Of a stretch of 64,000 nt of DNA, positions 128 through 62,293 are shown one piece after another. This DNA comes from an uncultured Desulfovibrio sp. (GTDB lineage Bacteria; Desulfobacterota; Desulfovibrionia; Desulfovibrionales; Desulfovibrionaceae), in the NCBI GenBank assembly GCA_944327285.1, contig CALVHG010000004.1, positions 1-64,000 of the forward strand, given 5' to 3'. Under the pieces are notes generated by a model. The model did no database searches. It saw only the letters and a program-made list of their open reading frames with translations, and was not told where the DNA came from. How positions within the stretch are numbered: the first letter of the stretch is position 1; every line of letters starts with the position of its first letter. Both the position numbers and the translations under genes were made by a program.

Positions 128-135
128 TCTTCATG

Positions 136-251
136 GCGAGGCGGCGGCGCAGTGTCCCCTGGCAAAAACAGGGTGGAAAAACCGCGCTTTTTCCGCGGAA
201 CGACAGGCCGTATGGTTTGAGACGCGCAGCGTTTTCAAACTGAAAATACTC
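136..251 (+). repeat. Family A TA-MITE, 5'-truncated copy
   Basis: It matches the family from the GCGAGGCGGCGGC block to the right terminal repeat (TCAAACTGAAAATACTC). The left terminal repeat is missing and the central GGCCCAAAG block has diverged. The right end runs directly into the inverted repeat at 248-300. See the copy at 28069-28212 for the full description. Confidence 0.8.
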
Positions 252-300
252 ATAAGAAACGGCTCCGCATGCAGGGCATACGGAGCCGTTTCTTATGAGT
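248..300. terminator. 20-bp perfect inverted repeat, terminator-like
   Basis: ACTCATAAGAAACGGCTCCG (248-267) and its exact reverse complement (281-300) flank a 13-nt loop. The AAGAAA/TTTCTT ends give U-rich tracts on both strands, so it could terminate in both directions. Its outer bases overlap the right end of the truncated MITE. Confidence 0.5.
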
Positions 301-410: not shown

Positions 411-534
411 TAAAGCGCGCTGGGGGGGGGGGGGGGGGGGGGGGGGAAGGGCCCAGCCTTTTCGCAGCGAAGCGAGAAAAGGCGTTCTCGTAGTCCTCTC
501 GCGCGAGCAGAGGGGGTTCCCCTCCCCCAACTAT
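411..534. repeat. Family B G-rich hairpin repeat with a 25-nt poly(G) tract
   Basis: It starts with the AAAGCGCGCTGGGG signature shared by other family B copies and ends with the GGGGGTTCCCC hairpin arm near 508-528. An uninterrupted run of 25 G (422-446) replaces the mixed GGGGAAGGGATGGGGGG block seen at 14387. It lies directly downstream of the thiC stop codon. The stretch 301-410 is weakly similar to the leader of the copy at 7113 and holds no gene. Confidence 0.7.
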
Positions 535-1809: not shown

Positions 1810-1903
1810 GAAGACGAGCCTCGCGGCCGTGCGCCATCGGGCGCGCGGCAGGTTGCGACGCGTGCCCGTGACCGTGGGGAGGGGATGCGAAGGCCCCGGC
1901 AAG

Positions 1904-1990
1904 CTTCCCTACGGCAGTACGAACTGCGTCAGGTTCATGGGGTCTGGGCGCGCTGCCAACTCTCAGCCGTCCCGCCGGAGTGCGTTTCAG
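1904..1990 (-). promoter_or_regulatory. TPP riboswitch (THI element) upstream of thiC
   Basis: Read on the minus strand, the conserved core elements are all present in order: GGCTGAGAG, then ACCC, ATGAACCTGA, a short CAGTTCGTACTG stem in place of the usual variable stem, and CGTAGGGAAGC. It ends about 95 nt before the thiC start. Established family: the thiamine-pyrophosphate aptamer, which usually shuts off thiC expression when thiamine is plentiful. The 5' boundary is approximate. Confidence 0.93.
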
Positions 1991-2159
1991 CAATTGAAAC
2001 GGCTCCGGGCCCGGCTCCCCCAGCTTTGCATGCGTCGCCCGCGCAGTATGCGCTTCGCGGGCGTACCGCGTTCAGAGGAAAAAGCGTAGCAACCCTTTCC
2101 CCTCCTGTAAAGCCCGGAGGGTTTGCATTCCCCGGCGTATTGGCCTACAGCATGTAGCC

Positions 2160-5405: not shown

Positions 5406-5497
5406 ATTTGTGTCACAGGCCTGTGCCTTGCCTTGACGCAATGACATCCGCCGTCTAGAACTAGAAACGCCGTGCACATGCGGCAAGAAACGCTTTA

Positions 5498-5640
5498 AAG
5501 CGTGTTGCCTTTGAAAAAGGCAGAACGCGAGGCGGCGACACCGCGCCGCCCGGCCTGACGCGAGCGGAAAAGGCGCGCTTTTTCCGCGAAACAACAGGCC
5601 GTATGGTTTGAACCGCAAGCGATTCAAACTGAAAATGCTT
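5498..5640 (+). repeat. Family A TA-MITE
   Basis: Near-full copy flanked by TA (5496-5497 and 5641-5642). The left end has diverged to AAGCGTGTTGCC; the right end ATTCAAACTGAAAATGCT is typical. It lies between rpsA and the carboxynorspermidine dehydrogenase gene. The rest of 5406-5714 holds no gene. Confidence 0.85.
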
Positions 5641-5714
5641 TAGCGGCCCCGTCGGCGTTGCCGCACGGCGCGCCGCGCCTTCCGGAACATGCAAGACAAC
5701 AAGGAGTGCACGCC

Positions 5715-8510: not shown

Positions 8511-8744
8511 GAAACTGACGCCTGTTCCCAGATATTTCTTTGTGCTCCTGCTGTCGCTTCCCGCGAGGTTTTCGCCTTGCGGGGGGCGGCTTTTTTTCGC
8601 GTTCCCTGCCGCGCGGGGCACGGTTTTTTGCGACGCCGCGATTCCTGATTTCTCTTGTTGCTATCTTTTTAAAAATCGTGTTACGTATGCCCTGCATATG
8701 CACCGCCGGGCCCGTGGCCCGTCACGATTCACCCGCAACCGTTA

Positions 8745-8880
8745 GAGCATTTTCAGTTTGAAATGCTTCGCATTTCAAATCATACGGCCTGCCGTTTCGC
8801 GGAAAAAGCACGGTTTTTCCGCTCACTTTGGGCCGGGCGGCGCTGTGCCGCCGCCTCGCGTTTTAAGCTGAAAATGCTCC
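8745..8880 (-). repeat. Family A TA-MITE, reverse orientation
   Basis: TA at 8743-8744 precedes GAGCATTTTCAGTTTGAAA; the other end has decayed to AAGCTGAAAATGCTCC. The element end is directly followed by AGGAGGA, the ribosome-binding site of the next gene, so the repeat forms its 5' leader. The stretch 8511-8744 has no gene; I see only a GC-rich stretch followed by an AT-rich, promoter-like segment near 8660-8690. Confidence 0.88.
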
Positions 8881-8894
8881 AGGAGGACAGGATT

Positions 8895-12580: not shown

Positions 12581-12618
12581 TCAAACTCCCCCATCTTCCC
12601 CAAAACTTGCGCACTCCA

Positions 12619-12651
12619 GAGCGTTTTGCCTTTGAAAACGGCAGAACGCTC
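12619..12651. repeat. 33-bp minimal family A element (two terminal repeats only)
   Basis: GAGCGTTTTGCC begins and GGCAGAACGCTC ends a 33-bp near-palindrome with almost no interior, followed by TA and TTTTT. It looks like a MITE reduced to its two terminal repeats; as RNA it would be a hairpin with a U-tract. Confidence 0.6.
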
Positions 12652-12716
12652 TATTTTTCTGTTCGTCGGCTGTCTGCGATAGCTTTGAGCAGATTTTTTA
12701 CTTTTTCGGCATGTTA

Positions 12717-12749
12717 GATCATTTCACTTTTGAAAAAGTTGAAACGCTC
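12717..12749. repeat. 33-bp minimal family A element, first of a three-element array
   Basis: GATCATTTCACTTTTGAAA begins and AAGTTGAAACGCTC ends a 33-bp unit flanked by TA at 12715-12716 and 12750-12751. The right TA is shared with the next element. Confidence 0.65.
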
Positions 12750-12751
12750 TA

Positions 12752-12885
12752 GAGCGTTTCAGCTTTGAAATGAGAGGAAGTTCCCGATTCATATGCCGCA
12801 ATCGTTGCCGTTCGCATTTCCCTGCGTACCATTTTCATAGCGGTAGATAAGGATATTCTTTTTACATCTCAAAGTTAAATTACTC
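12752..12885 (+). mobile_element. 134-bp non-autonomous IS630 derivative with a different interior
   Basis: The left end GAGCGTTTCAGCTTTGAAAT and right end TTTACATCTCAAAG...ACTC match the true ends of the IS630 copy at 36761-37749 more closely than those of the 144-bp family; the CATCTCAAAGTT block is shared only with the IS. The interior is unrelated to the 144-bp family. It is flanked by TA shared with its neighbours on both sides. Confidence 0.75.
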
Positions 12886-12887
12886 TA

Positions 12888-13031
12888 GAGCGTTTCAACT
12901 TTGAAAAAGGAGAAACGCGAGGCGGCGGCACAGCGCCGCCCTGCCCAAAGTGAGCGGAAAAACCGCGTTTTTTCCGCGAAACGACAGGCCGTATGGTTTG
13001 AAATGCACAGCATTTCAAACTGAAAATGCTC
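12888..13031 (+). repeat. Family A TA-MITE, third element of the array
   Basis: Full 144-bp copy flanked by TA (12886-12887 and 13032-13033). It is the last of three elements at 12715-13033 joined at shared TA dinucleotides. A short repeat of its right end (TATTTCAAACTGAAAA) follows at 13035-13050. The rest of 12581-13164 holds no gene. Confidence 0.92.
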
Positions 13032-13164
13032 TAGTATTTCAAACTGAAAAAAGCCCTAAAAGACACGATAATATAAAAAAGCGTGACTTTCAGGGCGAAA
13101 ATCGCTACGTTGAATTTACCCACAGCGGGGCGTCCGCCTGCGATTCAACCAGGGAGGGATTTTC

Positions 13165-14040: not shown

Positions 14041-14107
14041 GGAAGATCCGCGCCGGCGGAATATTTCGGTGACGCGGCGTGCGCGGTGTTCCTGACGGAA
14101 GCCTTGC

Positions 14108-14251
14108 GAGCATTTTGCTTTTGAAAACGGCAAAATGCGCGGCGGCGTGACAACGCCGCCCGGCCCGAAGTTGGCGGAAAGCCGCGCTTTTTCCGCGAAA
14201 CGACAGGCCGTATGGTTTGAAACGCGCAGCGTTTCAAACTAAAAATGTTCC
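14108..14251 (+). repeat. Family A TA-MITE
   Basis: Left end GAGCATTTTGCTTTTGAAAA, right end TTTCAAACTAAAAATGTTC. The flanking TA on both sides has been lost. It abuts the family B copy that starts at 14254. Confidence 0.85.
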
Positions 14252-14253
14252 AG

Positions 14254-14581
14254 GGCCTGCTAACACAAAATTTACAAATAATTTCAATATGTAAAAAACA
14301 GACTGTACGCACGCCACTTGTCTTTTGTGGCGGGGTCGCCTCGTATTCCTGACTCTTCCCCCGATAAAAGCGCGCTGGGGAAGGGATGGGGGGCTTGGGG
14401 GGAAGGGCCCAGCCTTTTCGCAGCGAAGCGAGGAAAGGCGTTCTCATAGTCCTCTCGCGCGAGCAGCGACCGGATGGCGGCCGCAGGCCGTACCCGTTGC
14501 GTCGAAGGAATGGGCATCGACAGCAGAGCAGAGGGGTTTCCCTTCCCCCCAAACAACTTACGAATAGTGTTAACACGCCCT
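14254..14581 (+). repeat. Family B repeat, long form (328 bp)
   Basis: It begins GGCCTGCTAACAC and ends GTGTTAACACGCCCTA, giving imperfect terminal inverted repeats around GTTAAC. In order it holds an AT-rich leader, the palindrome CCACTTGTCTTTTGTGG, the GATAAAAGCGCGCTGGGG signature, a run of G-tracts (14387-14407), a hairpin region with CCAGCCTTTTCGC, a segment with GCGGCCGCAGGCC, and the closing GGGTTTCCCTTCCCCCC arm. Copies at 20964 (inverted), 25921 and 18731 share this order. The right end is fused to the murI ribosome-binding site. Confidence 0.85.
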
Positions 14582-14593
14582 AAAGGAGCCTTC

Positions 14594-16003: not shown

Positions 16004-16093
16004 GGAAGGGTGGCAGAGCGGTTGATTGCGGCGGTCTTGAAAACCGTTGAAGGTTCGCGCCTTCCGGGGGTTCAAATCCCTCCCCTTCCGCCA
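16004..16093 (+). tRNA. tRNA-Ser (anticodon UGA)
   Basis: 90-nt class II tRNA. Acceptor GGAAGGG pairs with CCCTTCC, then discriminator G and encoded CCA (16091-16093). The D-arm begins TGGCAGAGCGGTTGATTG; the anticodon loop CTTGAAA contains TGA; a long variable arm follows (GTTGAAGGTTCGCGCCTTC); the T-loop is GGTTCAAATCC. Decodes UCA and other UCN codons. Confidence 0.95.
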
Positions 16094-16130: not shown

Positions 16131-16137
16131 GATGCCA

Positions 16138-16270
16138 GAGCGTTTTGCCTTTTTGAAGGAAAAACGCGAGGCGCTGCCGCCCGGCCCGAAGTGAGCGGAA
16201 AAACCGCGTTTTTCCCGCGAAACGATAGGCCGTATGGTTTGAACGCACAGCGTTTCAAACTGAAATGCTC
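16138..16270 (+). repeat. Family A TA-MITE
   Basis: 133-bp copy with a shortened GGCGCTGCCGCC block. CA precedes the left end where most copies have TA; TA follows the right end (16271-16272). Confidence 0.88.
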
Positions 16271-16324
16271 TAACAGGGTCGCGGAAAAGGCTGCTTTGGC
16301 AGTGACCGCGAAACGGAAGTGTCC

Positions 16325-18268: not shown

Positions 18269-18519
18269 GACCAACCTCCATACAACCCGCATATGCGGGA
18301 CAAATCCTTTTGAATGCCCTTCATAATGCAAACGGCTTGCCAAAATAAATTATACATTAAAAATCAATGTTTTATATTTATATGCTTGTCCACTTGCCGT
18401 TTTTTTGACGTCAGCGGATGTCGTTTCTCCGGCGGCAGGACGACAGAAAAAGTTTTTTGCGGCGGCGCGTTGTTTGTTGCGTCTGCGGCGTGTCACAGGG
18501 ATGACAGACGCGCCTTCTA

Positions 18520-18728
18520 GAGCATTTTCAGTTTGAAACGCTGTACGTTTCAAACCATACGGCCTGTCGTTTCGCGGAAAAAACGCGGTTTTTCCGCTCA
18601 CTTTGGGCCGGGCGGCGCGTCGGCAGATGCGGGAGAAGAGGGCGGAGGCTGTAAAAAATTCTGTCCCCGCTGTTCAGGGGGCGGCTGGCTGGCGGAGACG
18701 GGAGAGAACGTAATAAGGTAAAACGCTC
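18520..18728 (-). repeat. Family A MITE, enlarged variant with a foreign interior
   Basis: TA at 18518-18519 is followed by a normal left half (GAGCATTTTCAGTTTGAAA through GGGCCGGGCGGCG). About 100 bp of unrelated sequence (TCGGCAGATGCGGG onward) then replaces the rest before a terminal GGTAAAACGCTC and TA at 18729-18730. Total length is 209 bp. The stretch 18269-18517 is AT-rich and holds only the divergent leaders; no gene is seen. Confidence 0.75.
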
Positions 18729-23915: not shown

Positions 23916-23941
23916 GCGTTTTTTGGTGCTATTTCTTTTCA

Positions 23942-24065
23942 GAACGTTTTGCCTTTGAAAAAAGTGAAACGCGAGGCGGCCCCAACGGTGCGGAAAATTG
24001 TGTTTTTCCCGCACTGCTGGGGCCGTATGGTTTGAAATGCAAACAATCGCAAACTGAGAAGGCTT
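23942..24065 (+). repeat. Family A MITE, degenerate copy
   Basis: It begins GAACGTTTTGCCTTTGAAAA, keeps GTGAAACGCGAGGCGG and GGCCGTATGGTTTGAAAT, but has a replaced centre (CCCCAACGGTGCGG) that now pairs with a later CCGCACTGCTGGGG. The right end is decayed. An older copy. Confidence 0.7.
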
Positions 24066-24124
24066 CGGAAAAGCCGGTTTGGCCGCAAGGGTGGACCGCG
24101 GGCATCCGGACGTTTTTTCGGAAT

Positions 24125-25723: not shown

Positions 25724-25811
25724 AGGAGACATCGGCCGGACGGCCGTTTGGGGATGCCTCCGTACGCTCACAATCTTTTCCTTCTCCCGATCCCGTTCTC
25801 CCCGGCGCGTT

Positions 25812-25918
25812 GGCGGCACAGCGCCGCCCGGCCCAAAGCGAGCGGAAAAGCCGCGTTTTTTCGCGAAACGACAGACCGTATGGTTTGAAACGCACAGCGT
25901 TTCAAACTGAAAATGCTC
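25812..25918 (+). repeat. Family A MITE, 5'-truncated
   Basis: It matches the family from GGCGGCACAGCGCCGCCC to the right end (TTTCAAACTGAAAATGCTC). The left terminal repeat is absent. It is followed immediately by a family B copy. Confidence 0.85.
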
Positions 25919-25920
25919 CA

Positions 25921-26127
25921 GTGCCTGTTAACGTAGATTTTACAAATAATTTCAATAGATAAAATAAATAGACTGTACACGCGCCACTTGTCTTTCGTGG
26001 CGGGGTCACCTCGTATTCCTGACTCTTCCCCGATAAAAGCGCGCTGGGGAAGGGAAACACCTCTCGCGCGAGTAGAGGGGGTTCCCTTCCCCCCCAAACA
26101 ACTTACGAATAGTGTTAACAGCCCCTA
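25921..26127 (+). repeat. Family B repeat, internally deleted form (about 207 bp)
   Basis: It begins GTGCCTGTTAAC and ends GTGTTAACAGCCCCTAG. Both halves match the copy at 14254 but the central hairpin and GCGGCCGC segment are missing, leaving GGGAAACACCTCTCGCGCGAGTAGAGGGGG. Its outermost CTAGGGGCTGTT is identical to the end of the IS5-family element at 59841. The rest of 25724-26194 holds no gene. Confidence 0.8.
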
Positions 26128-26863: not shown

Positions 26864-27784
26864 ATGCTCACGACTTTACTTCAAAGCATCGGACGCACGC
26901 CTTTGCTGCGTCTTTCCCGTCTTGCAGCCGGTTTGCCGGGTATGCTGCTGCTTAAACTTGAAAATCAGAATCCCGGAGGCTCCATCAAGGATCGCGCGGC
27001 CTTCCATATTCTGGATCGCGCCATGCAGCGCGGCGAGCTGGCTCCCGGCGGCACAGTCGTAGAGGCCACCAGCGGCAATATGGGCATCGGCCTGGCCATG
27101 ACCTGCGCCGTCCGCGGCCTGCGCTGCGTGCTCGCCATGCCCGAATCCATGAGCGTTGAGCGGCGTCAGCTGCTTGCCTCGCTGGGGGCGGAACTGATAC
27201 TTACTCCGGCAGACAAGGGCATGGGCGGCGCCGTGGAGATGGCCGAAAACATCGCCGTCGAGCGCAGGGCCTTTCGTCCCCGCCAGTTCGATAATGCCGA
27301 CGCCATCGAGGCCCACTACACGACCACCGGGCCGGAGATTCTGCACGACAGCAACGGCGCCGTGGATGCGCTGGTGTCCGGCGTCGGTTCCGGGGCGACG
27401 TTGTCCGGCACCGGCTTGTATCTCAAGGGGCTTGTGCCCGACTGCCGGATCATTGCCGTGGAGCCTGCCGAATCGCCTGTGCTGTCCGGCGGCAAGGCCG
27501 GTCCGCACGGCATTCAGGGCATCGGCGCGGGTTTTATCCCCCGGAATCTGAATCGGAATATTGTGGATGAAGTCGTGACGGTGACCACGGACGAGGCCCG
27601 CGAAACCGCGCGCAGGCTCATGTCCGCGGAAGGCGTCTGCGCGGGTATTTCCACAGGGGCCAACCTTGCGGCGGCCCTGCGCATTGCGGCCCGGCCGGAA
27701 ATGAGCGGCAAGAATATTGTCACTTTTGCCTGCGATACCGGAGAGCGCTATCTGTCCACGGGGCTGTTTTCCGAGGGGCGCTAG
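26864..27784 (+). CDS. Cysteine synthase (O-acetylserine sulfhydrylase)
   Basis: PLP enzyme that makes cysteine from O-acetylserine and sulfide, an obvious sink for sulfide in a sulfate reducer. It is 306 residues. The PLP lysine is in GGSIKDRAAF; the substrate loop EATSGNMGIGLAMTCAVRG, the phosphate-binding GVGSGATLSGTG and the C-terminal SAEGVCAGISTGAN are all present. The TSGNMG form (Met rather than Thr) is seen in some CysK/CysM variants. The TAG stop is formed by the TA flank plus the first base of the MITE that follows. Confidence 0.93.
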   Translation: MLTTLLQSIGRTPLLRLSRLAAGLPGMLLLKLENQNPGGSIKDRAAFHILDRAMQRGELAPGGTVVEATSGNMGIGLAMTCAVRGLRCVLAMPESMSVERRQLLASLGAELILTPADKGMGGAVEMAENIAVERRAFRPRQFDNADAIEAHYTTTGPEILHDSNGAVDALVSGVGSGATLSGTGLYLKGLVPDCRIIAVEPAESPVLSGGKAGPHGIQGIGAGFIPRNLNRNIVDEVVTVTTDEARETARRLMSAEGVCAGISTGANLAAALRIAARPEMSGKNIVTFACDTGERYLSTGLFSEGR

Positions 27785-27926
27785 AGCGTTTTACCTTTGA
27801 AAAAGATGAAACGCGAGGCGGCGGCACAGCGCCGTCCGGCCCAAAGTGAGCGGAAAAACTCGGTTTTTCCGCGAAACGACAGGCCGTATGGTTTGAAATG
27901 CGAAGCATTTTAAACTGAAAATGCTC
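27784..27926 (+). repeat. Family A TA-MITE inserted at the cysteine synthase stop codon
   Basis: 143-bp copy flanked by TA (27782-27783 and 27927-27928). The first base of the element (G) completes the TAG stop of the upstream gene, so the coding sequence is intact. Confidence 0.92.
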
Positions 27927-28068
27927 TAAAGGCCGCTGCGCGCGGGCCGCATGCCGCGCCTGCGCTAAACATTTTGCGTTTCCGGCCGAAAAGACTATAT
28001 CCGGGTTTCAGTGGCTGAAGCCCGAATTGCAGTTACAATGACGCAACACGTTGTTTTATTTTTGCTTA

Positions 28069-28212
28069 GAGCGTTTCAACTTTGAAAAAGGTGAAGCGCG
28101 AGGCGGCGGCACAGCGCCGCCCGGCCCAAAGTGAGCGGAAAAACTGCGCTTTTTCCGCGAAACGACAGGCCGTATGGTTTGAAACGCACAGCGTTTCAAA
28201 CTGAAAATGCTC
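28069..28212 (+). repeat. Family A TA-MITE, reference copy
   Basis: 144 bp between TA dinucleotides (28067-28068, 28213-28214). Left end GAGCGTTTCAACTTTGAAA; right end, reverse complemented, GAGCATTTTCAGTTTGAAA: 15 of 19 positions agree. Inside are three short palindromic blocks: GGCGGC-ACA-GCGCCGCC; GCGG-AAAAA...TTTTT-CCGC; and GTTTGAAACGC-ACA-GCGTTTCAAAC. Between them are near-invariant strings GGCCCAAAGTGAG and GAAACGACAGGCCGTATGG. It has no coding capacity. IS630 elements insert at TA, and the ends match the IS at 36761-37749. Confidence 0.93.
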
Positions 28213-28488
28213 TAGAGAGACGCTGCGCTTCTTTCCCGTGGCTGAGAGGCGCGCCTGATGTTTCTTTATTTTTAACAGATAAGGCTCCAGAGCGCATCGA
28301 CGTGAAAAAGATTCTCCCCTGAAGCGGAACCTTGTTCCTCCGCAGATGCTCTCCTCCGGGAAGACGTCGGGAAACCACGGCAACAGGAGACAGTATGCCC
28401 CCCGGAAACCGGCGTCATTGCATCGGAGAGCTGCTCTGGAAATACGCCCGGCGTGCTCTTGCCGCCATCGGCCATGTTTGGAGACAGT
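28213..28488. other. Leader region of cheV
   Basis: No gene is supported. A GGAGACAGTATG string occurs at 28386-28397 and again at the real cheV start (28480-28491), and GGAAACCGGC recurs downstream of each; it looks like a degenerate local duplication or a decoy start. No confident promoter is seen. Confidence 0.4.
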
Positions 28489-34208: not shown

Positions 34209-34320
34209 GGGGTAACGTTAAATCGTTCTTCTGGGGGGAAGGAAACCCCCTTGGCTAGCGCGCAAGGTGGTTTCCTTCCCCCCAGGCCCCCCATCCTTCC
34301 CCCAACGCGCTTTTTCAAAG
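34206..34320. repeat. Family B G-rich hairpin repeat after cobA-hemD
   Basis: TAGGGGGTAACG, then TTCTTCTGGGGGGAAGGAAACCCCCTTGG pairs with CAAGGTGGTTTCCTTCCCCCCAG around a GCTAGCGCG loop, followed by C-tracts (CCCCCCATCCTTCCCCC) and CGCGCTTTTT. The copy at 46103 is nearly identical. It could terminate cobA-hemD mRNA. Confidence 0.75.
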
Positions 34321-34400
34321 GGGACACAGGCCATGTGGCAAGTAGCTTTCAAAGGTCATGTGTAGTCTTCATTTTCTGTTTATTTGAAATAAATAGAAAT

Positions 34401-34445
34401 ATCTTTGAAAAAGGTAAAACGCGAGGCGGCGGGACTGCGCCTCCC
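34401..34445 (+). repeat. Family A MITE fragment
   Basis: Only the left internal part remains: ATCTTTGAAAAAGGTAAAACGCGAGGCGGCGGGACTGCGCC, with no right half. It ends about 60 nt before purN. Confidence 0.6.
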
Positions 34446-34503
34446 GTTCCCGGCCCTCCGAGAACGTCTTTTCCCCTTCAGCCCTTGACGGAGAGAGTCT
34501 ACC

Positions 34504-35252: not shown

Positions 35253-35396
35253 TCCCCCTCTCCCTTCAAAAATCGCTCGTCTGATTGTTCGCGGTCATCC
35301 GGCCGCAAGCTTCGTCTCCTGTGTCGCCGTCCCCCGGTTGCGCGCATGTTCTGCCGCTGCCGGGGGCTGCTTTTGAGGGCGTGCGTTTTGGTGACA

Positions 35397-35539
35397 GAGC
35401 GTTTCACCTTTGAAAATGGCAAAACGCGAGGCGGGCGCAGCGCCGCCCGGCCCAAAGAGAGAGAGGAAAAATCGTGTTTTTCCACGAAGCGACAAGCCGT
35501 ATGGTTTGAAATGCGAAGCATTTCAAACTGAAATTGCTC
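35397..35539 (+). repeat. Family A TA-MITE in duplication unit 1
   Basis: 143-bp copy; CA precedes and TG follows instead of TA. The GGCGGGCGCAGCGCCGCCC block is shortened relative to the reference. Confidence 0.9.
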
Positions 35540-35655
35540 TGGGTTGCTCGCGGTCATCCGGCCGCAAGCTTCGTCCCCTGTGTCGCCGTCCCCCGATTGT
35601 GCGCATGTTCTGCCGCTGCCGGGGGCTGCTTTTGAGGGCGTGCGTTTTGGTGACA

Positions 35656-35793
35656 GCGCGTTTCACCTTTGAAAAAGGCAAAACGCGAGGCTGGCGCAGC
35701 GCCGCCCGGCCCAAAGAGAGAAAAATCGAGTTTTTCCGCGAAGCGACAAACCGTATGGCTTGAAATGCGAAGCATTTCAAACTGAAATTGCTC
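35656..35793 (+). repeat. Family A TA-MITE in duplication unit 2
   Basis: 138-bp copy sharing the shortened GC block and GAAATTGCTC right end with unit 1. Its right end is 5 nt from the GGGAGG ribosome-binding site of the Fic gene. Confidence 0.9.
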
Positions 35794-35808
35794 TGGCTGG
35801 GAGGAAGC

Positions 35809-36802
35809 ATGCGTAAAGAGGTAACGCTAACTTTTCATCTCGATGCTGATTTGAAAAAACAATTCATAGCTGCTGCAAAAAATAAAAATATGTCTGCCTC
35901 AGACGTATTGCGTATGCTTATACAAGACTTTGTTCATCATAATCAAAAGAAGTCTGGCGTACAGATTTTGCCAGAGGAGCAGGAAAAAAGAAGGGAGGCT
36001 GTCGAATTTGGACATGCTTCTGTCGTTCTTGAAGGCTTGCAGATCCCGGATCAGGAAAAACAGCATGCGGAACGTTTTATATCTGGTGAAATAACTCTGG
36101 AAGAGTTTATAACTGCTCCTTGTAAAACTGAAATTAACGCAACAGTTCTGTCTCGCAGGATTGTTGAACTTGAATTTTGTCCGGTACAAGGAAAATTTGA
36201 CGCTGACCATTTAAAAGAAATTCATCGAAGAATATTCCAGAATTTGCCTTTCAAATGTGAAGACTTTTCCCCCGGAGAATTTAGACATCCTTCAGGAAAA
36301 AATCTTGACTGGGTAAAAACGCGCCAGCTTGAAAGTGTTAATGCTATTTCAAATGTCGCATATTCAAGCATGTCTTGTGATGTTCAAAATAGATTGAACA
36401 AAATTCTTTCTGCAATTGATATACAAAAGATTTCGATGCTGGATGAAAAAAACATTTTCAAAATATATGGCAGAATTATATATTGAACTTGACTATATAC
36501 ATCCTTTTATGGATGGAAACAGCAGGGCGTTAAGAAGTTTTACGCGACAGATAACAAAAGAGGCTGGATATATGTTGCACTGGGAAGTTTTTAACAGCAA
36601 TCCTGCAGGGAGATGCATCCTCTATATCGCAAGGGATATAAGCGTGAACAGAATTGCGCTCCCGCTTGCGAAAGCAGACGGGACAAAAAGAGATATTACT
36701 TTTACGCTGGATCAGCTGGGAAATAATAGAGATATGTATACGCTAATGAAAGATATTTTAGAGCGTTTCACCTTTGAAATGATTTGTATCCACAAGAAAT
36801 AA
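35809..36802 (+). pseudogene. RHH-VbhA-Fic single-chain toxin-antitoxin protein, frameshifted and truncated by IS630
   Basis: Residues 1-48 (MRKEVTLTFHLDADLKKQF...MSASDVLRMLIQDF) look like a ribbon-helix-helix DNA-binding domain. Residues about 60-105 resemble a VbhA-type antitoxin with the inhibitory motif S-x3-E-G as SVVLEG (71-76), then ERFISGEITLEEFI. A Fic (AMPylation) domain follows, with FSPGEFRHPSGK and, in the next frame, HPFMDGNSRALR (36500-36535); the consensus is HxFxxGNGRxxR, so GNSR is a variant. The frame changes at a run of seven A (36446-36452); removing one A restores DEKTFSKYMAELY. The 3' end reads into the IS630 terminal repeat from 36761, replacing the C-terminus with ERFTFEMICIHKK. 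Base composition is clearly AT-richer than the neighbours, pointing to transfer. Start: ATG after GGGAGG. Confidence 0.8.
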
Positions 36803-37749
36803 ACCAGCCTTGAGCGTCGCGAGCCGACACGGCGCTCAAGGCTCTTTTTATTCCTGAATATATTTCTTCGATAGTCTTTGCCCTGATTCCTCGAATGAGC
36901 TGTTTCACCTTGCTCCACATCTTTTCTATAGGATTCAAATCCGGGCTGTACGCTGGAAGGAATAACACTTTTGCCTTCCTGCTGCGAATCGCTTCTTCCG
37001 CTACCTGTGACTTGTGAGAAGAGAGATTATCCATGATGACAATATCTCCTTCACGCAGAGATGGCGCCAGAATTTTTTGGACGTACACTTCAAAAATGCT
37101 TTTTGTGAGCGCTCCTTCAAAAACAAAACTCTCTGTTGTCCCATCAAGACGAATGGAAGACACGATTGTTATTGAAAGGACACGGCCAGCTATGACAGCA
37201 TCACAACAGCGGGAACCTCCGCGGGCTCGTCCATAACGACGTGTCATGTTGTTTCTTACGCCGGACTCGTCAAGAAAGACGAGATGTTTCATATCTTTAT
37301 TTTGCTGAAAGATTTTCCATCGTTGTCGTGTGCGTACGATGTCCGCGCGATCCTGTTCCTTCGCTCTGAGAGTTTTTTTAAACACAAAACCAAGAGCTTT
37401 GACAATCTTGTGAACAGCATTCAGAGAGCATTGCTTGCCGAAGTGCGTACGGATTTCATCCAGAGTTATATCTGGTCTTTTCTCAAGTAGTTCAACAAGC
37501 TGTTTTCGTTCTTCTGCCGAAAACATGGAAATTCTGTGACCACGGGGAAGCTCTTCGACTCTTCCCTCCGTCTGATAAGCACGAAGCCATCTGTTGATAG
37601 TATTGAGATGATACCCAAGAGTCTCAGCAATCTGCTGAGGGGAAACGCCTGAGTCATATGCCTTAATCGCTAGTGTTCGTATTTCTTGGCTCGCTATTTT
37701 CATGACGGCATAATAACATATTTTTTTACATCTCAAAGTTGAATTGCTC
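36761..37749 (-). mobile_element. IS630-family insertion sequence (989 bp), intact
   Basis: Flanked by TA (36759-36760 and 37750-37751), the usual IS630 target. Terminal repeats GAGCGTTTCACCTTTGAAAT and, reverse complemented from the right, GAGCAATTCAACTTTGAGAT agree at 16 of 20 positions. It contains one full transposase gene. The left end interrupts the Fic gene; the right TA is shared with a family A MITE. Confidence 0.93.
36768..37703 (-). CDS. IS630-family DDE transposase
   Basis: 311 residues. The N-terminal helix-turn-helix is like winged-helix 'homeodomain' transposases (AYDSGVSPQQIAETLGYHLNTINRWLRAYQ); a second HTH-like region is LLEKRPDITLDEIRTHFG. The DDE catalytic triad can be read: LVFLDESGV, VIMDNLSSHKS and the YSPDLNPIEKMWSKVK box with the final Glu. 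ATG 37703; the TGA stop lies within the left terminal repeat, 7 bp from the element edge. It appears complete, so it could act in trans on family A elements (inference). Confidence 0.95.
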   Translation of the reverse strand: MKIASQEIRTLAIKAYDSGVSPQQIAETLGYHLNTINRWLRAYQTEGRVEELPRGHRISMFSAEERKQLVELLEKRPDITLDEIRTHFGKQCSLNAVHKIVKALGFVFKKTLRAKEQDRADIVRTRQRWKIFQQNKDMKHLVFLDESGVRNNMTRRYGRARGGSRCCDAVIAGRVLSITIVSSIRLDGTTESFVFEGALTKSIFEVYVQKILAPSLREGDIVIMDNLSSHKSQVAEEAIRSRKAKVLFLPAYSPDLNPIEKMWSKVKQLIRGIRAKTIEEIYSGIKRALSAVSARDAQGWFISCGYKSFQR

Positions 37750-37751
37750 TA

Positions 37752-37892
37752 GAACATTTTCAGTTTGAAATGCTTCGCATTCCAACCATACGGCCTGTCG
37801 TTTCGCGGAAAAACACAATTTTCCGCTCAATTCGGGCCGGGCGGCGCTGTGCCGCCGCCTCGCGTTTCACCTTTTTCAAAGTTGAAATGCTC
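37752..37892 (-). repeat. Family A TA-MITE, reverse orientation, abutting IS630
   Basis: 141-bp copy flanked by TA (37750-37751 shared with the IS; 37893-37894). The left end has GAACATTTTCAG in place of GAGCATTTTCAG. Confidence 0.9.
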
Positions 37893-37893
37893 T

Positions 37894-37929
37894 AAAAAAG
37901 CCCCTGAGCCAGAATCCGGCACAGGGGCT
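37894..37929 (-). terminator. Intrinsic terminator (minus strand) downstream of uvrC
   Basis: AGCCCCTG and CAGGGGCT pair around a 15-nt loop; on the minus strand TTTTTT follows. It lies beyond the family B copy that follows uvrC. Confidence 0.7.
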
Positions 37930-40396: not shown

Positions 40397-40528
40397 GATG
40401 CCTCCTGAAGATGGTTGAAGCGTTTTCATCTAGGCTTAACGCCGGGATACGCCTCCCGCCCCCGGCGGCGTCGCACACATATGACCGGAGTATCTTCCCC
40501 CTCAAAAAAGCGATACTTTCCGCTTCCT

Positions 40529-40670
40529 GAGCTTTTTTAGTTTGAACCGCGTTGCAGTTCAAACCATACGGCCTGTCGTTTCGCGAAAAAAGAGTGTTGT
40601 TCCGCTCGCTTCAGGCCGGACGGCGCTGGGCCGCACCTCGCGTTGTACCTTTGTCAAAGATAAAACGCTC
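40529..40670 (-). repeat. Family A TA-MITE at the porin stop codon, reverse orientation
   Basis: 142-bp copy with a decayed left end (GAGCTTTTTTAGTTTGAA). The right end AAAACGCTC is followed by TA (40671-40672). Read on the minus strand, that TA plus the element's first G make the TAG stop of the porin gene. The stretch 40397-40528 has no gene. Confidence 0.88.
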
Positions 40671-42169
40671 TAAAAATTATACGCATAGAAGAAATTGATA
40701 TTCCAGGCGTCGCGCACATCATCACGGTAGCCGTTCATGCGGCTGTTCCCCCAGACGCTGTTGCTCTTGTCCAGCCACAGGGCCATATAGGCGGCCTCTA
40801 TGCCGACGGTCATATTTTCATAAATCTTCGTGTAGCTGGACAAGCCCACTTCCAGAGCCACGTCCCGTGTGGTGAGATACAGGCCTTCCATACCGGGAAC
40901 GCCGAACGAGCCGCTATTGGCGGCCAGCCCTTCGCTGCTCAGCCAGCGGGCCATTCGGGGGCTGTTGGTGCCGCCGATGACATTGACGCGCAGACTCTGC
41001 TTCACGTCCTCAATAACGGAAATATCCTTAAGGCGCAGCCCCACGCCCCATGTTCCGGCCATGCTCCAGCCCACGGCGCATTCCCGGCCGATATTCGGAT
41101 TCCCGGAAAAGGCAAAATGGGAAAAGTCGTTGTCGCTGCCGCTCAGGGAAAGCACGGGCAGACGCTCCGAGCCGTCGCCCCGGTTACCGTTATCGCCGGA
41201 GGCATACCAGCCGTAAATGCCGGGCGTCACCCAGTCCAGCTTGTATTCGGCCAGCAGCGAGGCTATCCAGCCGCGACGGGAGGCCGAAGCATCGTCATGC
41301 CGCACGCTGCCATAGACGGCATCCCACGCCAGACGGAACGGGTCCCAGAGAACGATCTCGCCTGTCAGACCGGCCCACCAGACACTCCCCCAGGACGTAA
41401 GGCTTTCACGGTGCGACGCGCCGCCAACGGGCAGCATGCCGCCCCGGTACATGTCGAAGGACGCGCCGTAACGGTCGAAATCTCCCGCGCTGCGGAAGGT
41501 ATTGGGGCCGATCATGCCGTACACGCCCCACGGCGTGAGGTTCACCCCCTCAAAACGCAGGGGCAGCGCCAGACCGAACAGATCCATGTTATCCAGCAGG
41601 GACGCCCTGACGCCGTTGCGGCTCCCCTGCGTGGTTCCGGCAAAGTTGTCGTTGTAGGGACGCGCCCAGAAGGCGGTGAGATCGGCAGACTCGGCAAGAT
41701 GCGCCGTCAGACTGACAGCCGCCACATCATCGGCCAGCACCTGCGAACCGGCAGTCATGCCCGGCAGCTCCAGCGGCTGAATCCCCATGCGAACCCGAAT
41801 ATCCGTCGCGGGAATCATCCAGTCGAGATAGGCATGCTTGACTTCAACAACAGTGCCGTCCGCCCCCATGGCCGCGCCGTCAGTTCCGCGCCCCCAGAGC
41901 TGATCGCCGATTTCCAGCGCCAGCGTGCCGGAAAGCGATTCGGAGGCCACGGCCTCCAGCTGCAGACGCAGGCGCTGACGCGCCTCGAAGTTATCTTCCT
42001 GCTGCACGCCGTATCCATAGGAACCGGAACCGCCGGTAAAGGCGCCGTGCTGCCCGTAATCAAAATTCATCAGCCATTGCCCCCTGGCCTTGAAATCGAC
42101 GGCGGCGGCAGGGGCGGAAGCGGACAGCAGCAGGGCGGCGGTCAGAAGGAGAAGGGACAGATGTTTCAT
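40670..42169 (-). CDS. Outer-membrane homotrimeric porin (Desulfovibrio type)
   Basis: Beta-barrel porin, 499 residues, with a signal peptide (MKHLSLLLLTAALLLSASAPAAA) and mature start VDFKARGQWLMNFDYGQHG, the usual opening of the abundant porin family of Desulfovibrio. It shows alternating aromatic/hydrophobic strands throughout and ends in FFYAYNF with a terminal Phe, the BAM recognition signal. ATG 42169. The gene follows the epimerase gene after a hairpin, so it probably has its own promoter. The stop codon is made by a MITE edge. Confidence 0.85.
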   Translation of the reverse strand: MKHLSLLLLTAALLLSASAPAAAVDFKARGQWLMNFDYGQHGAFTGGSGSYGYGVQQEDNFEARQRLRLQLEAVASESLSGTLALEIGDQLWGRGTDGAAMGADGTVVEVKHAYLDWMIPATDIRVRMGIQPLELPGMTAGSQVLADDVAAVSLTAHLAESADLTAFWARPYNDNFAGTTQGSRNGVRASLLDNMDLFGLALPLRFEGVNLTPWGVYGMIGPNTFRSAGDFDRYGASFDMYRGGMLPVGGASHRESLTSWGSVWWAGLTGEIVLWDPFRLAWDAVYGSVRHDDASASRRGWIASLLAEYKLDWVTPGIYGWYASGDNGNRGDGSERLPVLSLSGSDNDFSHFAFSGNPNIGRECAVGWSMAGTWGVGLRLKDISVIEDVKQSLRVNVIGGTNSPRMARWLSSEGLAANSGSFGVPGMEGLYLTTRDVALEVGLSSYTKIYENMTVGIEAAYMALWLDKSNSVWGNSRMNGYRDDVRDAWNINFFYAYNF

Positions 42170-44755: not shown

Positions 44756-46105
44756 ATGATCAGTTTCTACCGCATGGCCCTCTTGCAGGTACTGGACATT
44801 CTCTGTCTGGTGGTTGCCCTGACTATATCGGGGCTGACCACTATCGAACCCGGCCTGAACGTCTTTGACGACTACACCGGGGCCTCGCTGTTTACCGTTT
44901 TCTTCTACCTGCTGTTCTTCTACATTCTCGACGCCTACAGCGTCGGTATGGAAGACTTCAAGGAAACCTGCGGCCGCGTGCTGGTGGCCTGCGTGCTGGC
45001 CATCATCAGTTCCGCAACGGCGTCCTATTCCTTTGATCACTGGCGCTTCGACAGAGAAACGGCCCTGCTGCTCTTCTGCCTGTCCATGCTCTTCTGTCTG
45101 GGATGGCGCTTCCTCTACTACCTTAACGCCGACAAGGTAACGCATCCGCTGCGCGTCCTGTTCATCGGCGTCGACAGGGCGGGCAAGGTGCGTCAGATGC
45201 TAGCGGAAAGCCTGCCCAAGGCAACCATTCTCGGCTATGTGGGCGAGCCCGGTCAGGCCCCGGACGCCGGCCCCTGCCTCGGCGCCCCCTTTCAGGCCCT
45301 GTCCATTGCGCGGGAAAAGGGCGCGACCATCATCGTGCTTCTCCCCGACGCGCCCATTGACGACGACATTGCCCGCGATCTCCTCGACGCCAAGCTGCGC
45401 GGCGCCATGATTGTGGACATTCGCGCCTTCTATGAACACGTGGCGCACCGTCTGCCCATAGGGCTCATCACCGACGAATGGCTGCTGCAGTCCGAAGGCT
45501 TCTCCCTCAATACGCGGGGTTCCCTGCGCCGCCTCAAGCGCGCGCTCGACGTGATGATTTCCCTGCTGCTGCTCATTCCCGCCGGGCCGGTCATGCTGAT
45601 CACCGCCCTGCTGATCCGGCTGGAATCGCCGGGGCCGGTCATCTACACCCAGAGTCGCGTCGGCCTGTTCGAAAAGGAATTCACGGTTTACAAATTCCGC
45701 TCCATGCGGACCGATGCGGAAAAGAACGGCGCCGTCTGGGCCAAGGCGCATGACGACCGCGTAACGCGCGTGGGCCGTATCATCCGCAAGGTGCGCATCG
45801 ACGAGCTGCCTCAAATCTGGAACATCCTCAAGGGCGATATGAGTTTCATCGGGCCCCGTCCCGAACGCATGACCTTTGTGCGCCAGCTCAAGGAAAGCAT
45901 CCCCTACTACGGCATGCGCCACATGGTGAAGCCGGGTCTCACCGGCTGGGCGCAGGTCTGCTACCCCTACGGGGCTTCGGAAGACGACGCCCGCCGCAAG
46001 CTGGAGTACGATCTCTACTACATCAAGAACATGTCCATCCTGCTGGACATCCACATCATCTTCAAGACCGTGGGCGTGGTGCTCTTCCCCAAGGGCGCAC
46101 GCTAG
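44756..46105 (+). CDS. Polyprenyl-phosphate sugar-1-phosphate transferase (WcaJ/EpsB-like)
   Basis: Membrane enzyme that starts a glycan on undecaprenyl phosphate. It is 449 residues. Several N-terminal membrane spans (to about residue 110) are followed by a CoA-binding-like region, a further hydrophobic hairpin (VMISLLLLIPAGPVMLITALL) and the C-terminal bacterial sugar transferase domain with SRVGLFEKEFTVYKFRSMRTDAE, RKVRIDELPQIWNILKGDMSFIGPRPER and KPGLTGWAQV. ATG 44756 follows AAGGAG. Its TAG stop coincides with the edge of a family B repeat. Confidence 0.93.
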   Translation: MISFYRMALLQVLDILCLVVALTISGLTTIEPGLNVFDDYTGASLFTVFFYLLFFYILDAYSVGMEDFKETCGRVLVACVLAIISSATASYSFDHWRFDRETALLLFCLSMLFCLGWRFLYYLNADKVTHPLRVLFIGVDRAGKVRQMLAESLPKATILGYVGEPGQAPDAGPCLGAPFQALSIAREKGATIIVLLPDAPIDDDIARDLLDAKLRGAMIVDIRAFYEHVAHRLPIGLITDEWLLQSEGFSLNTRGSLRRLKRALDVMISLLLLIPAGPVMLITALLIRLESPGPVIYTQSRVGLFEKEFTVYKFRSMRTDAEKNGAVWAKAHDDRVTRVGRIIRKVRIDELPQIWNILKGDMSFIGPRPERMTFVRQLKESIPYYGMRHMVKPGLTGWAQVCYPYGASEDDARRKLEYDLYYIKNMSILLDIHIIFKTVGVVLFPKGAR

Positions 46106-46220
46106 AGCGTGTTACCACGAAATTGTTCTTCTGGGGGGAAGGAAACCCCCTTGGCTAGCGCGCAAGGGCTGTTTCCTTCCCCCCAGGCCCCCATCCTTCC
46201 CCCAACGCGCTTTTACCAGA
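46103..46220. repeat. Family B G-rich hairpin repeat
   Basis: TAGAGCGTGTTACC, then TTCTTCTGGGGGGAAGGAAACCCCC paired with GTTTCCTTCCCCCCAG around a loop containing CTAG, then C-tracts and CGCGCTTTT. Nearly identical to the copy at 34206. Confidence 0.75.
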
Positions 46221-46240
46221 CGACGCAGCGTTTAAAACTA

Positions 46241-46384
46241 GAGCGTTTCACCTTTGAAAATGGTAAAAAGCGAGGCGGCGGCACAACGCCGCCCGGCCCG
46301 AATTGAGCGGAAAAACCACACTTTTTCCGCGAAACGACAGGCCGTATGGTTTGAAATGCGAAACAGTTCAAACTTAAAATGCTC
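46241..46384 (+). repeat. Family A TA-MITE
   Basis: Full 144-bp copy, TA at 46239-46240 and 46385-46386; left end GAGCGTTTCACCTTTGAAAA is identical over 18 nt to the IS630 left end. Confidence 0.92.
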
Positions 46385-46432
46385 TAAAAAAGGCCGGAAG
46401 CGCTTCCGGCGCACAAAAGCGGCCATTCCTTG

Positions 46433-48270: not shown

Positions 48271-48332
48271 CGGCAGGCGCTCGGCCGCGCCGGTCTTCCC
48301 CGCGCCCGCGCCTCTGCCCCGTCAACGCATTA

Positions 48333-48476
48333 GAGCGTTTCAACTTTGAAAAAGGTGAAACGCGAAGGCGGCAGCACAGCGCCGCCCGGCCCAAAGTGAG
48401 CGGAAAACCGCGTTTTTTCCGCGAAACGGCAGGCCGTATGGTTTGAAATGCACAGCATTTCAAACTGAAAATGCTC
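48333..48476 (+). repeat. Family A TA-MITE fused to the aroE ribosome-binding site
   Basis: Full 144-bp copy between TA dinucleotides (48331-48332, 48477-48478). The right TA is part of TAGGAGA, the Shine-Dalgarno of aroE, so the element lies immediately upstream of the translation start. Confidence 0.92.
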
Positions 48477-48489
48477 TAGGAGATATGCC

Positions 48490-49326: not shown

Positions 49327-49440
49327 AGTTTTTCGTAAGTTGGTTGGGGGGAAGGGAAACCCCTCTACTAGCGCAAGAGGTGTTTCCCTTCCCCCAAGCC
49401 CCCCATCCCTTCCCCAGTGCGCTTTTTCAGACGGATGCAG
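49324..49440. repeat. Family B G-rich hairpin repeat after aroE
   Basis: TAGAGTTTTTCGTAAGTTGG, then GGGGGGAAGGGAAACCCCTCT pairs with AGAGGTGTTTCCCTTCCCCC around a loop with CTAGCGCA, then C-tracts and GTGCGCTTTTTC. Confidence 0.75.
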
Positions 49441-58834: not shown

Positions 58835-58861
58835 TTTGAGGGGGGAAGGGCCCTCCTCTGC
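58835..58861. repeat. Left arm of a family B hairpin, split by insertions
   Basis: TTTGAGGGGGGAAGGGCCCTCCTCTGC; the matching right arm is at 59844-59868. Joined across CTAG they would form the usual family B hairpin. A MITE and an IS5-type element now lie in the loop. Confidence 0.8.
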
Positions 58862-58863
58862 TA

Positions 58864-59009
58864 GAGCATTTTCAGTTTGAAACGCTGTGCGTTTCAAACC
58901 ATACGGCCTGTCGTTTCGCGGAAAAAACGCGGTTTTTCCGCTCACTTTGGGCCGAACGGCGCTGTGCCGCGCCGCCTCGCGTTTCATCTTTTTCAAAGTT
59001 GAAACGCTC
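58864..59009 (-). repeat. Family A TA-MITE inserted in a family B loop
   Basis: 146-bp copy flanked by TA (58862-58863, 59010-59011), within CTAG on both sides. The left neighbour is the hairpin arm; the right neighbour is the IS5-type element. Confidence 0.92.
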
Positions 59010-59043
59010 TAGGGGTTGTTTCTAAAAAAGCTGGACATCTTGA

Positions 59044-62001: not shown

Positions 62002-62126
62002 ACTGCTCCTTTTTCGGGGGGACAACTACTTGATACAGAGGGAAGGGGATTTCCAGACCGGCGCACAGGGGCCCCGACCTTTCCGATAAAAAGACGCTCA
62101 CGCATTTTCTTAACGGGCTGTTACCA

Positions 62127-62271
62127 GAGCGTTTCACCTTTGAAAAAAGGTGAAACGCGAGGCGGCGGCACAGCGCAGCCCGGCCCAAAGTGAGCGGAAA
62201 AACAGCGCTTTTTCCGCGAAACGACAGACCGTATGGTTTGAAACGCGCAGCGTTTCAAACTGAAAATGCTC
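62127..62271 (+). repeat. Family A TA-MITE inside an operon
   Basis: 145-bp copy between the reductase (62294) and ACP (62001) genes, both on the minus strand; CA precedes and TG follows. It would be transcribed as part of the operon mRNA and could separate expression of the two halves. Confidence 0.92.
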
Positions 62272-62293
62272 TGGACGTTCGCAAAGCGTCGCG

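What the first reader, a model, noticed from the sequence alone, without database searches (positions are those of the whole stretch)
36761..37749. IS630 element and a ~144-bp MITE family share terminal repeats: a trans-mobilised repeat system
Seen: the IS630 ends (GAGCGTTTCACCTTTGAAAT and its partner) match the ends of about 20 short non-coding elements spread over 64 kb, and IS and MITEs alike sit between TA dinucleotides, often within CTAG. The MITE at 46241 is identical to the IS left end over 18 nt. Established: IS630/Tc1-mariner transposases target TA, and short non-autonomous relatives such as RUP and Correia elements are known elsewhere. Inference: the intact transposase here can move the MITEs; if this density holds genome-wide the family is unusually abundant. 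I do not know a named family with this sequence.
Basis: partly seen in the sequence, partly recalled or inferred. Interest (0 to 1): 0.85.

Follow-up and report, generated by a model that had tools for sequence, protein, structure and literature searches.

The report
Stop-codon-friendly IS630 mini-transposon swarm
A gut Desulfovibrio genome carries an estimated 870 copies of a 149-letter non-coding DNA element that likely spread by borrowing the enzyme of a matching jumping gene; many copies sit right at gene stop signals, which the element's own end then supplies, and its conserved folded core is predicted to have a job of its own.

Summary
The window has one intact IS630 (36761-37749; 312-aa DD34E transposase) and 20 copies or fragments of a 149-nt element whose ends begin TAGAGC like the IS. 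A 400-kb sample gives 105 copies: about 870 genome-wide, 3.3% of the sample. Sisters G022 and G020 are also rich in it.

Insertion is at YTAR (34 of 39). At four orthologous sites the empty sister shows one TA; at six it does not, so TA duplication is supported, not proven. Trans-mobilisation is inferred; an IS630 internal-deletion derivative (12750-12887) and abutments sharing one TA support it.

New beyond the finding: (1) 23 of 80 full copies abut a predicted stop codon; in 22 the element's end supplies the stop, and four sister orthologues without the copy end at the same codon (2 TAA, 2 TGA). (2) The interior shows no IS similarity, folds into four hairpins, shows compensatory change within and between species, and in old copies is less diverged than the ends. 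(3) Copies are co-oriented with flanking same-strand genes (50:16). (4) The core was found only in this genus.

Closest precedent: pneumococcal RUP with IS630-Spn1. New variant of a known kind.

The parts
36759..37751 (-). IS630-type insertion sequence with its flanking TAs; ends TAGAGCGTTTCACC... and TAGAGCAATTCAAC...
   Evidence: Sequence and end comparison
36771..37706 (-). IS630 transposase, 312 aa, DDE_3 and HTH domains, DD34E triad
   Evidence: Sleeping Beauty match 8e-8
12750..12887 (-). IS630 internal-deletion derivative, 138 nt: 24 nt of the IS left end (96%) joined to about 117 nt of the IS right end (74%)
12617..12653 (.). 37-nt palindrome made of two left-end-like sequences
12715..12751 (.). 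37-nt palindrome made of two left-end-like sequences; shares a TA with the deletion derivative
37749..37894 (-). Near-full MITE copy abutting the IS630 and sharing one TA with it
5496..5643 (+). MITE copy, near full length; site also filled in G022 and G020
12886..13034 (+). MITE copy, full length; abuts the IS630 deletion derivative
14106..14253 (+). MITE copy, near full length
16136..16273 (+). MITE copy, near full length
23940..24068 (+). MITE copy, decayed (64.6 bits)
27782..27929 (+). MITE copy, near full length; supplies the TAG stop of the predicted gene 26942-27784 (G022 gene ends in TGA at that codon)
28067..28215 (+). MITE copy, full length, 99% to the consensus
35395..35542 (+). MITE copy, near full length
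35654..35796 (+). MITE copy, near full length
40526..40672 (-). MITE copy, near full length; supplies the TAG stop of the predicted gene 40670-42169; site also filled in G022 and G020
46239..46387 (+). MITE copy, near full length; G022 has only a short double-end remnant at the site
48331..48479 (+). MITE copy, full length; absent in G020, where the site reads CG, not TA
58861..59011 (-). MITE copy, full length
62125..62274 (+). MITE copy, near full length
129..254 (+). MITE fragment (model 31-146)
8742..8881 (-). MITE fragment (model 26-148)
18517..18630 (-). MITE fragment (model 47-149)
25803..25921 (+). MITE fragment (model 32-148)
34394..34477 (+). MITE fragment (model 11-67)

Best explanation
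The ~149-nt elements are a non-autonomous transposon (MITE) family with IS630-type ends that sits at YTAR sites, almost always outside predicted genes, and was likely spread in trans by the transposase of IS630 elements like the one in this window. Counting the flanking TA, both ends read TAG, so a copy that lands in the TA of a TAA or TAG stop codon restores termination at that codon in either orientation. That copies now supply stops at native gene ends is shown at orthologous genes; that such insertions are nearly neutral, and so help one genome tolerate about 870 copies, is inferred. Between the ends lies a core without IS similarity: a string of hairpins and an unpaired GAAACGACA motif, maintained with compensatory changes within and between species. 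I infer that the core is selected as a structured RNA in mRNA 3' regions (3'-end stability or transcription end), because copies lie mostly downstream of genes and mostly in the sense orientation. Shown: shared ends, copy number in the sample, YTAR sites, element-supplied stops, covariation, orientation bias. Inferred: mobilisation by this transposase, and any RNA function.
For: Ends: 29 and 26 matches against 0 reversed, left end 18-19 of 20. Copies: 105 in 400 kb. Target YTAR 34 of 39. Single TA in the empty sister at four loci. IS630 deletion derivative and abutments sharing a TA. Transposase with DD34E and no stop. Stops: 23 of 80 full copies abut a predicted stop, 22 supply it, against 17% of non-coding YTAR sites being stop codons (77 of 451); four sister genes without the copy stop at the same codon; 6 of 10 scanned proteins reach within 5 positions of the end of a curated model. 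Core: z -6.8 RNA; 68 two-sided cells against 26.2 shuffled in own copies; 79 against 27.4 across seven genomes; old copies 7.8% diverged in the core, 18.2% at the ends. Position: 50 sense, 16 antisense, p 3.3e-5, within contigs p 0.008; 7 of 106 between divergent genes against 47 of 324 gene pairs.
Against: No transposition was observed. Six orthologous empty sites lack TA. G020 is rich in MITEs without a detectable transposase of this group. The right end matches the IS at only 14 of 20. In ZJ369, A70_62 and STD2_94 MITE ends do not consistently favour the own IS. No intrinsic-terminator excess and no Rfam family. Orientation bias in the 21 youngest same-strand copies alone is 14:7, p 0.19. 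Outer helix of the core pairs in only 67% of cells across species.
Confidence: 0.72

Rival explanations
1. A plain parasitic MITE: the core has no cellular role; covariation comes from palindrome-driven template switching or from a need of the structure in transposition, and the 3' location only reflects where insertions are tolerated.
For: BOX, RUP, SPRITE and IS elements of pneumococcus are also enriched between convergent genes, read there as tolerance (PMC3049150, passages). Six double-end palindromes of 37-51 nt in the sample suggest palindrome-driven rearrangement of these ends (0 of 29 control hits as palindromic). DNA fold is as strong as RNA fold (z -7.7).
Against: ISY100 needs only its 24-bp ends (PMC2170065, passage), so a core more conserved than the ends in old copies is unexpected. 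Sense orientation 50:16 is not explained by stop codons, which either end would supply. Core kept in G007/G004 copies that lack intact ends on both sides.
Confidence: 0.4
2. The MITEs were spread by a different IS630-group transposase, since lost or not assembled, and the single IS in the window is a bystander with similar ends.
For: Only one IS copy against about 870 MITEs; G020 has none detected; the right ends match poorly; related MITEs live in genomes with diverged IS630s.
Against: Left ends 18-19 of 20 identical to own and G022 IS ends; deletion derivative with the same ends; multi-copy IS elements often collapse in fragmented assemblies (inference).
Confidence: 0.3
3. The repeats are host REP-like or structured-RNA elements that are not transposon-derived, and the match to the IS ends is convergence on TA-flanked palindromes.
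For: Strong structure and intergenic location.
Against: End match with reversed control of 0, TA at both ends in 39 of 52 anchored copies, presence/absence at orthologous sites.
Confidence: 0.04

Closest known systems
RUP of Streptococcus pneumoniae with IS630-Spn1
   Same: Short (107 bp), intergenic, TA sites, ends like an IS630 of the same genome, proposed to be moved in trans, convergent-gene enrichment (PMC2229807 and PMC3049150, passages).
   Different: About 108-110 copies there, about 870 estimated here; 149 nt; no stop-codon pattern or cross-species covarying core was mentioned for RUP in the passages I saw.
BOX elements of pneumococcus
   Same: BOX supplies the stop codon of 36 genes without clear truncation (PMC3049150, passage).
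   Different: Modular A/B/C repeats linked to ISSpn2, not IS630.
Correia/NEMIS, ERIC
   Same: TA at the termini, stable RNA folds, intergenic, high copy (PMC2229807, PMC10969869, passages).
   Different: No IS630-type match was stated for their ends in those passages; sequence unrelated as far as Rfam and my searches show (ERIC 711 copies in Photorhabdus is the highest count cited).
ISY100 and Tc1/mariner/IS630 transposons
   Same: DDE transposase, TA target duplicated (34 of 39 products in vitro), 24-bp ends sufficient (PMC2170065, passages).
   Different: The window IS has no biochemistry; YTAR is inferred from its MITEs.

Membership tests
MITE (non-autonomous DNA transposon) | Short, non-coding, terminal inverted repeats, many copies | tested here: met
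   149 nt, TAGAGC ends, 105 hits in 400 kb; 1 of 117 copies overlaps a predicted gene
MITE (non-autonomous DNA transposon) | Presence/absence at orthologous sites | tested here: met
   Filled in one genome, absent in a sister at ten readable sites
MITE (non-autonomous DNA transposon) | Target-site duplication shown by empty sites | tested here: inconclusive
   Single TA at four orthologous and three paralogous sites; not TA at six orthologous and one paralogous
MITE (non-autonomous DNA transposon) | Movement by a partner transposase | not testable with these tools
   Needs an experiment
IS630/Tc1-mariner (the IS) | DDE_3-type transposase with DD34E and N-terminal HTH | tested here: met
   Pfam DDE_3 1.4e-33, HTH_23 3e-12; D-D-E with 34 residues between
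IS630/Tc1-mariner (the IS) | Inverted terminal repeats flanked by TA | tested here: met
   19 of 26 identical including TA
RUP | Same sequence family | not tested
   No RUP sequence was compared; likeness is of kind, not of membership
Known Rfam RNA family | Score above a family's gathering cut-off | tested here: not met
   Window: only TPP and tRNA; five loci at E<=1: one hit, 27.9 bits against a cut-off of 54, only partly overlapping the element

The most novel reading that the evidence does not exclude
A bacterial SINE-like parasite turned 3'-UTR toolkit: a genus-specific structured RNA module has been packaged between IS630 ends, spreads to hundreds of sites, many of them stop codons where it leaves the protein unchanged, and gives those genes a shared folded mRNA tail that selection keeps after mobility is lost.
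Probability: 0.22. Interest if true: 0.8.

Novelty: new variant of a known kind. Interest (0 to 1): 0.6.

Why it matters
By my estimate it exceeds the highest bacterial MITE count cited in the review I saw (711 ERIC copies, passage), and it offers a concrete, testable route to such loads: ends that rebuild the stop codon they interrupt. Cross-species covariation gives a defined structure to test for a role at mRNA 3' ends, and the sister genomes provide filled/empty pairs.

Tried and rejected
Tracking of MITE ends by each genome's own IS630 looked promising, but the direct table shows it only for own/G022; not used. Recent activity between genomes: nearest-neighbour identity falls own > G022 > G020, but one search used loci chosen by similarity, and fragmented assemblies lose young repeats; not used. 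Identical young-copy consensus in own and G022 is biased by its 0.95 filter, and unfiltered consensuses differ at a few positions; not used. Intrinsic terminators: 25 found, 23.7 expected in 19 kb. Rfam: nothing convincing. Gene truncation instead of native stops: disfavoured where there are data, but 4 of 10 scanned proteins are not decided (one no model, one domain-only, two models ending 34-46 positions short with 24-30 residues left in the protein). Corrected on re-check: the copy at L192:16269 is not at a stop codon (its upstream frame is not open), so it is no longer counted there; one search had listed it by hand.

Rows dropped before counts: L197:12536 (75% identity, TGA in the match) as too distant; 12 of its 24 entries had any sister sequence; 57 copies above 140 bits, 52 anchored, 39 with TA at both ends. 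Empty sites: of 120 queries 24 gave spanning alignments, many of them abutting copies or self; L007, L024, L400 and the copies L315:5018 and L317:5346 could not be read at the site. A1 holds 74 of the 78 copies listed plus L001; four shorter or decayed ones were left out. A2 holds 31 of the cores found (chance pattern matches and some true cores left out by eye); A3 drops three more (window:5550, L359, L118).

Full report
Setting. The window is contig C4 of a 3.33-Mb, 179-contig genome, GC 0.60. Its nearest held relatives are G022 and G020; orthologous stretches are mostly 88-96% identical. G022 is very probably Candidatus Desulfovibrio intestinigallinarum: two of its contigs, 18,504 and 5,484 bases, have the lengths of DXFI01000071.1 and DXFI01000057.1, which carry the matching transposase pieces.

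The IS. One IS630-type element lies at 36761-37749 between TA dinucleotides. Its 312-aa transposase has DDE_3 and HTH domains, a D-D-E triad with 34 residues between the second D and the E, no internal stop, and one PDB match, Sleeping Beauty at 8e-8. It is the only match in the own genome (1 match, 5 candidates). In the relatives set 18 of 61 genomes, own included, have some match, many of them partial. Several related IS630 elements outside Desulfovibrio also begin TAGAGC, though not all.

The MITE. A profile from ten copies finds 20 hits above 30 bits in the window, 15 near full length, and 105 in 400 kb from 20 other contigs, 1 to 9 per 20 kb. Scaled, that is about 870 copies, fragments included, and 3.3% of sampled bases. 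The sampled contigs are among the largest and some stretches were chosen where one search had shown a copy, so this is an estimate. First-look candidates were 815 in the own genome, 741 in G022 and 675 in G020. The review seen in passages cites 711 ERIC copies in Photorhabdus; I looked for higher counts only, by listings.

Ends. The MITE left end is 18 of 20 identical to the own IS end and 19 of 20 to the G022 IS end; the right end 14 and 15 of 20. The IS ends hit the window 29 and 26 times, reversed controls 0. At 12750-12887 lies an IS630 internal-deletion derivative with 24 nt of the left end and about 117 nt of the right end; it abuts a 37-nt double-end palindrome on one side and a full MITE on the other, each junction with a single TA. 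The window IS likewise shares a TA with the MITE at 37749-37894.

Target. In 39 full copies with TA at both ends (of 52 anchored, of 57 above 140 bits) the inferred target is YTAR in 34, against 149 of 1472 TA sites in the window.

Empty sites. At four orthologous loci the sister without the copy has a single TA at the site: L192:8980 against G020, L181:11683 against G020, a G022 copy (L322:5187) against own and G020, and L192:16269 against G022, where the right flank aligns only from its 50th base. At six it does not: L189:13117 (TG), window:48331 (CG), window:27782 (TG, a TGA stop), a G020 copy against own (CG), L181:8454 (CTC, poor alignment) and a G022 copy against own (CC). Three copies inserted in other repeats have paralogous empty copies with one TA; one has CGG. 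Intergenic DNA looks more diverged than coding DNA, so decay of the TA is a likely part of this, but I cannot show it.

Stop codons. A simple dicodon gene finder gave 345 genes in 464 kb. Of 80 full copies with genes on both sides, 23 abut a predicted stop codon within 5 nt; in 22 the stop is the element's own end, 21 TAG and one TAA. One more case lies at a stretch edge (L180:18280). Outside elements, YTAR occurs at 77 stop codons and 374 intergenic sites, so 17% would be expected and 29% is seen. Six of ten such proteins reach within 5 positions of the end of a curated model, for example HisD 393/393; the other four are undecided. Where a sister lacks the copy, its gene ends at the same codon: TAA for L180:18280 (G022 and G020) and L192:6724 (G020, while G022 is filled); TGA for L193:13100 (G020) and window:26942 (G022). 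At two further stops the sister holds another repeat that also begins TAG.

Position. Of 117 copies above 40 bits one lies in a predicted gene, 66 between same-strand genes, 33 convergent, 7 divergent, 10 at stretch edges; adjacent gene pairs number 224, 53 and 47. Between same-strand genes 50 are co-oriented with transcription and 16 opposed, p 3.3e-5; stratified by contig p 0.008. The bias runs in the same direction in all score classes (14:6, 16:3, 20:7), but the 21 youngest alone give 14:7, p 0.19. Either end supplies TAG, so the stop codon does not explain it.

Core. A consensus-like copy folds at -70.6 kcal/mol, z -6.8 as RNA and z -7.7 as DNA, into four hairpins; in RNA the two ends also pair. 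In 74 distinct copies 68 cells change on both sides of a pair, 26.2 expected from shuffles, 8 to 17 with slid partners. Across 28 cores from seven genomes the figures are 79, 27.4 and 3 to 18, with 14 of 27 pairs changed on both sides; one pair is A-U in 14 and U-A in 14. There, further pair types did not exceed shuffles (137 of 500), and the outer helix fits only 67% of cells. In 31 old copies the ends differ from the reference at 18.2% and the core at 7.8%; the loops of hairpins 3 and 4 differ at 35% and 47%, those of hairpins 1 and 2 at 13% and 18%. Subfamily differences are mixed into these numbers and copies are not independent. None of the G007 and G004 copies shown has intact TAGAGC ends on both sides, yet the core is recognisable. 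A covariance model finds the core in 13 of 61 genomes, own included, all of one genus, and in 3 of 297 genomes spread over the phylum, all of that genus; both searches used strict filters.

Reading. Shared ends, TA sites and the deletion derivative make trans-mobilisation by an IS630-group transposase the best account, as proposed for RUP (PMC2229807, passages). That the window's own IS does it is inferred. The core is the unexpected part: ISY100 needs only its 24-bp ends (PMC2170065, passage), so a core conserved with compensatory change suggests a second role, most simply in the mRNA tail. Palindrome-driven template switching could mimic covariation and is the main alternative.

Literature. 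Ten searches listed no title or abstract on this family or on MITEs in Desulfovibrio. Passages were seen in PMC10969869, PMC4853749, PMC2229807, PMC3049150, PMC2170065 and PMC7325037; the last names Desulfovibrio only in a possible horizontal transfer. Stop codons supplied by BOX elements are a precedent. That IS630 prefers CTAG is recalled, from no call.

Noticed in passing
window 34220-34314, 46103-46214, 49333-49427, 14251-14582 and others: A second abundant repeat family (GGGGGGAAGGaaacccc...CTAGCGCGC...; one end begins TAGGGCCTGTTAACA, another TAAAAGCGCGCTGGGG). In 464 kb 19 left-end-like and 44 right-end-like matches, 3 of the 19 at predicted stop codons; in sisters it sits at stops that hold the MITE in the own genome.
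   Followed up: partly
window 12617-12653 and 12715-12751; L185:7409-7458, L193:17691-17741, L194:74-123, L197:4794-4830: Palindromes of 37 nt (two left ends) or 50-51 nt (two right ends) without a core; 6 of 37 pattern hits are at least 70% palindromic, 0 of 29 control hits.
   Followed up: partly
window 35365/58820 and 37780/59849; L173, L174: In G020 the segment between about 37.8 and 58.8 kb is joined in inverted order at places where the own genome has MITEs in opposite orientation: recombination between MITEs, or an assembly error.
   Followed up: no
L181:10298-10591; G022:C194, C262, C257, C272, C182, C90: Head-to-tail MITE pairs that share one TA are common.
   Followed up: no
window 36416-36802: The IS630 ends an open frame with HPFMDGNSR, which I recall as Fic-like (motif from memory); the frame runs on into the IS for 13 codons.
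   Followed up: no
window 412-450: A long G run inside a copy of the second repeat family.
   Followed up: no
window 1889-2031 (-) and 16004-16090 (+): TPP riboswitch and a tRNA gene.
   Followed up: no
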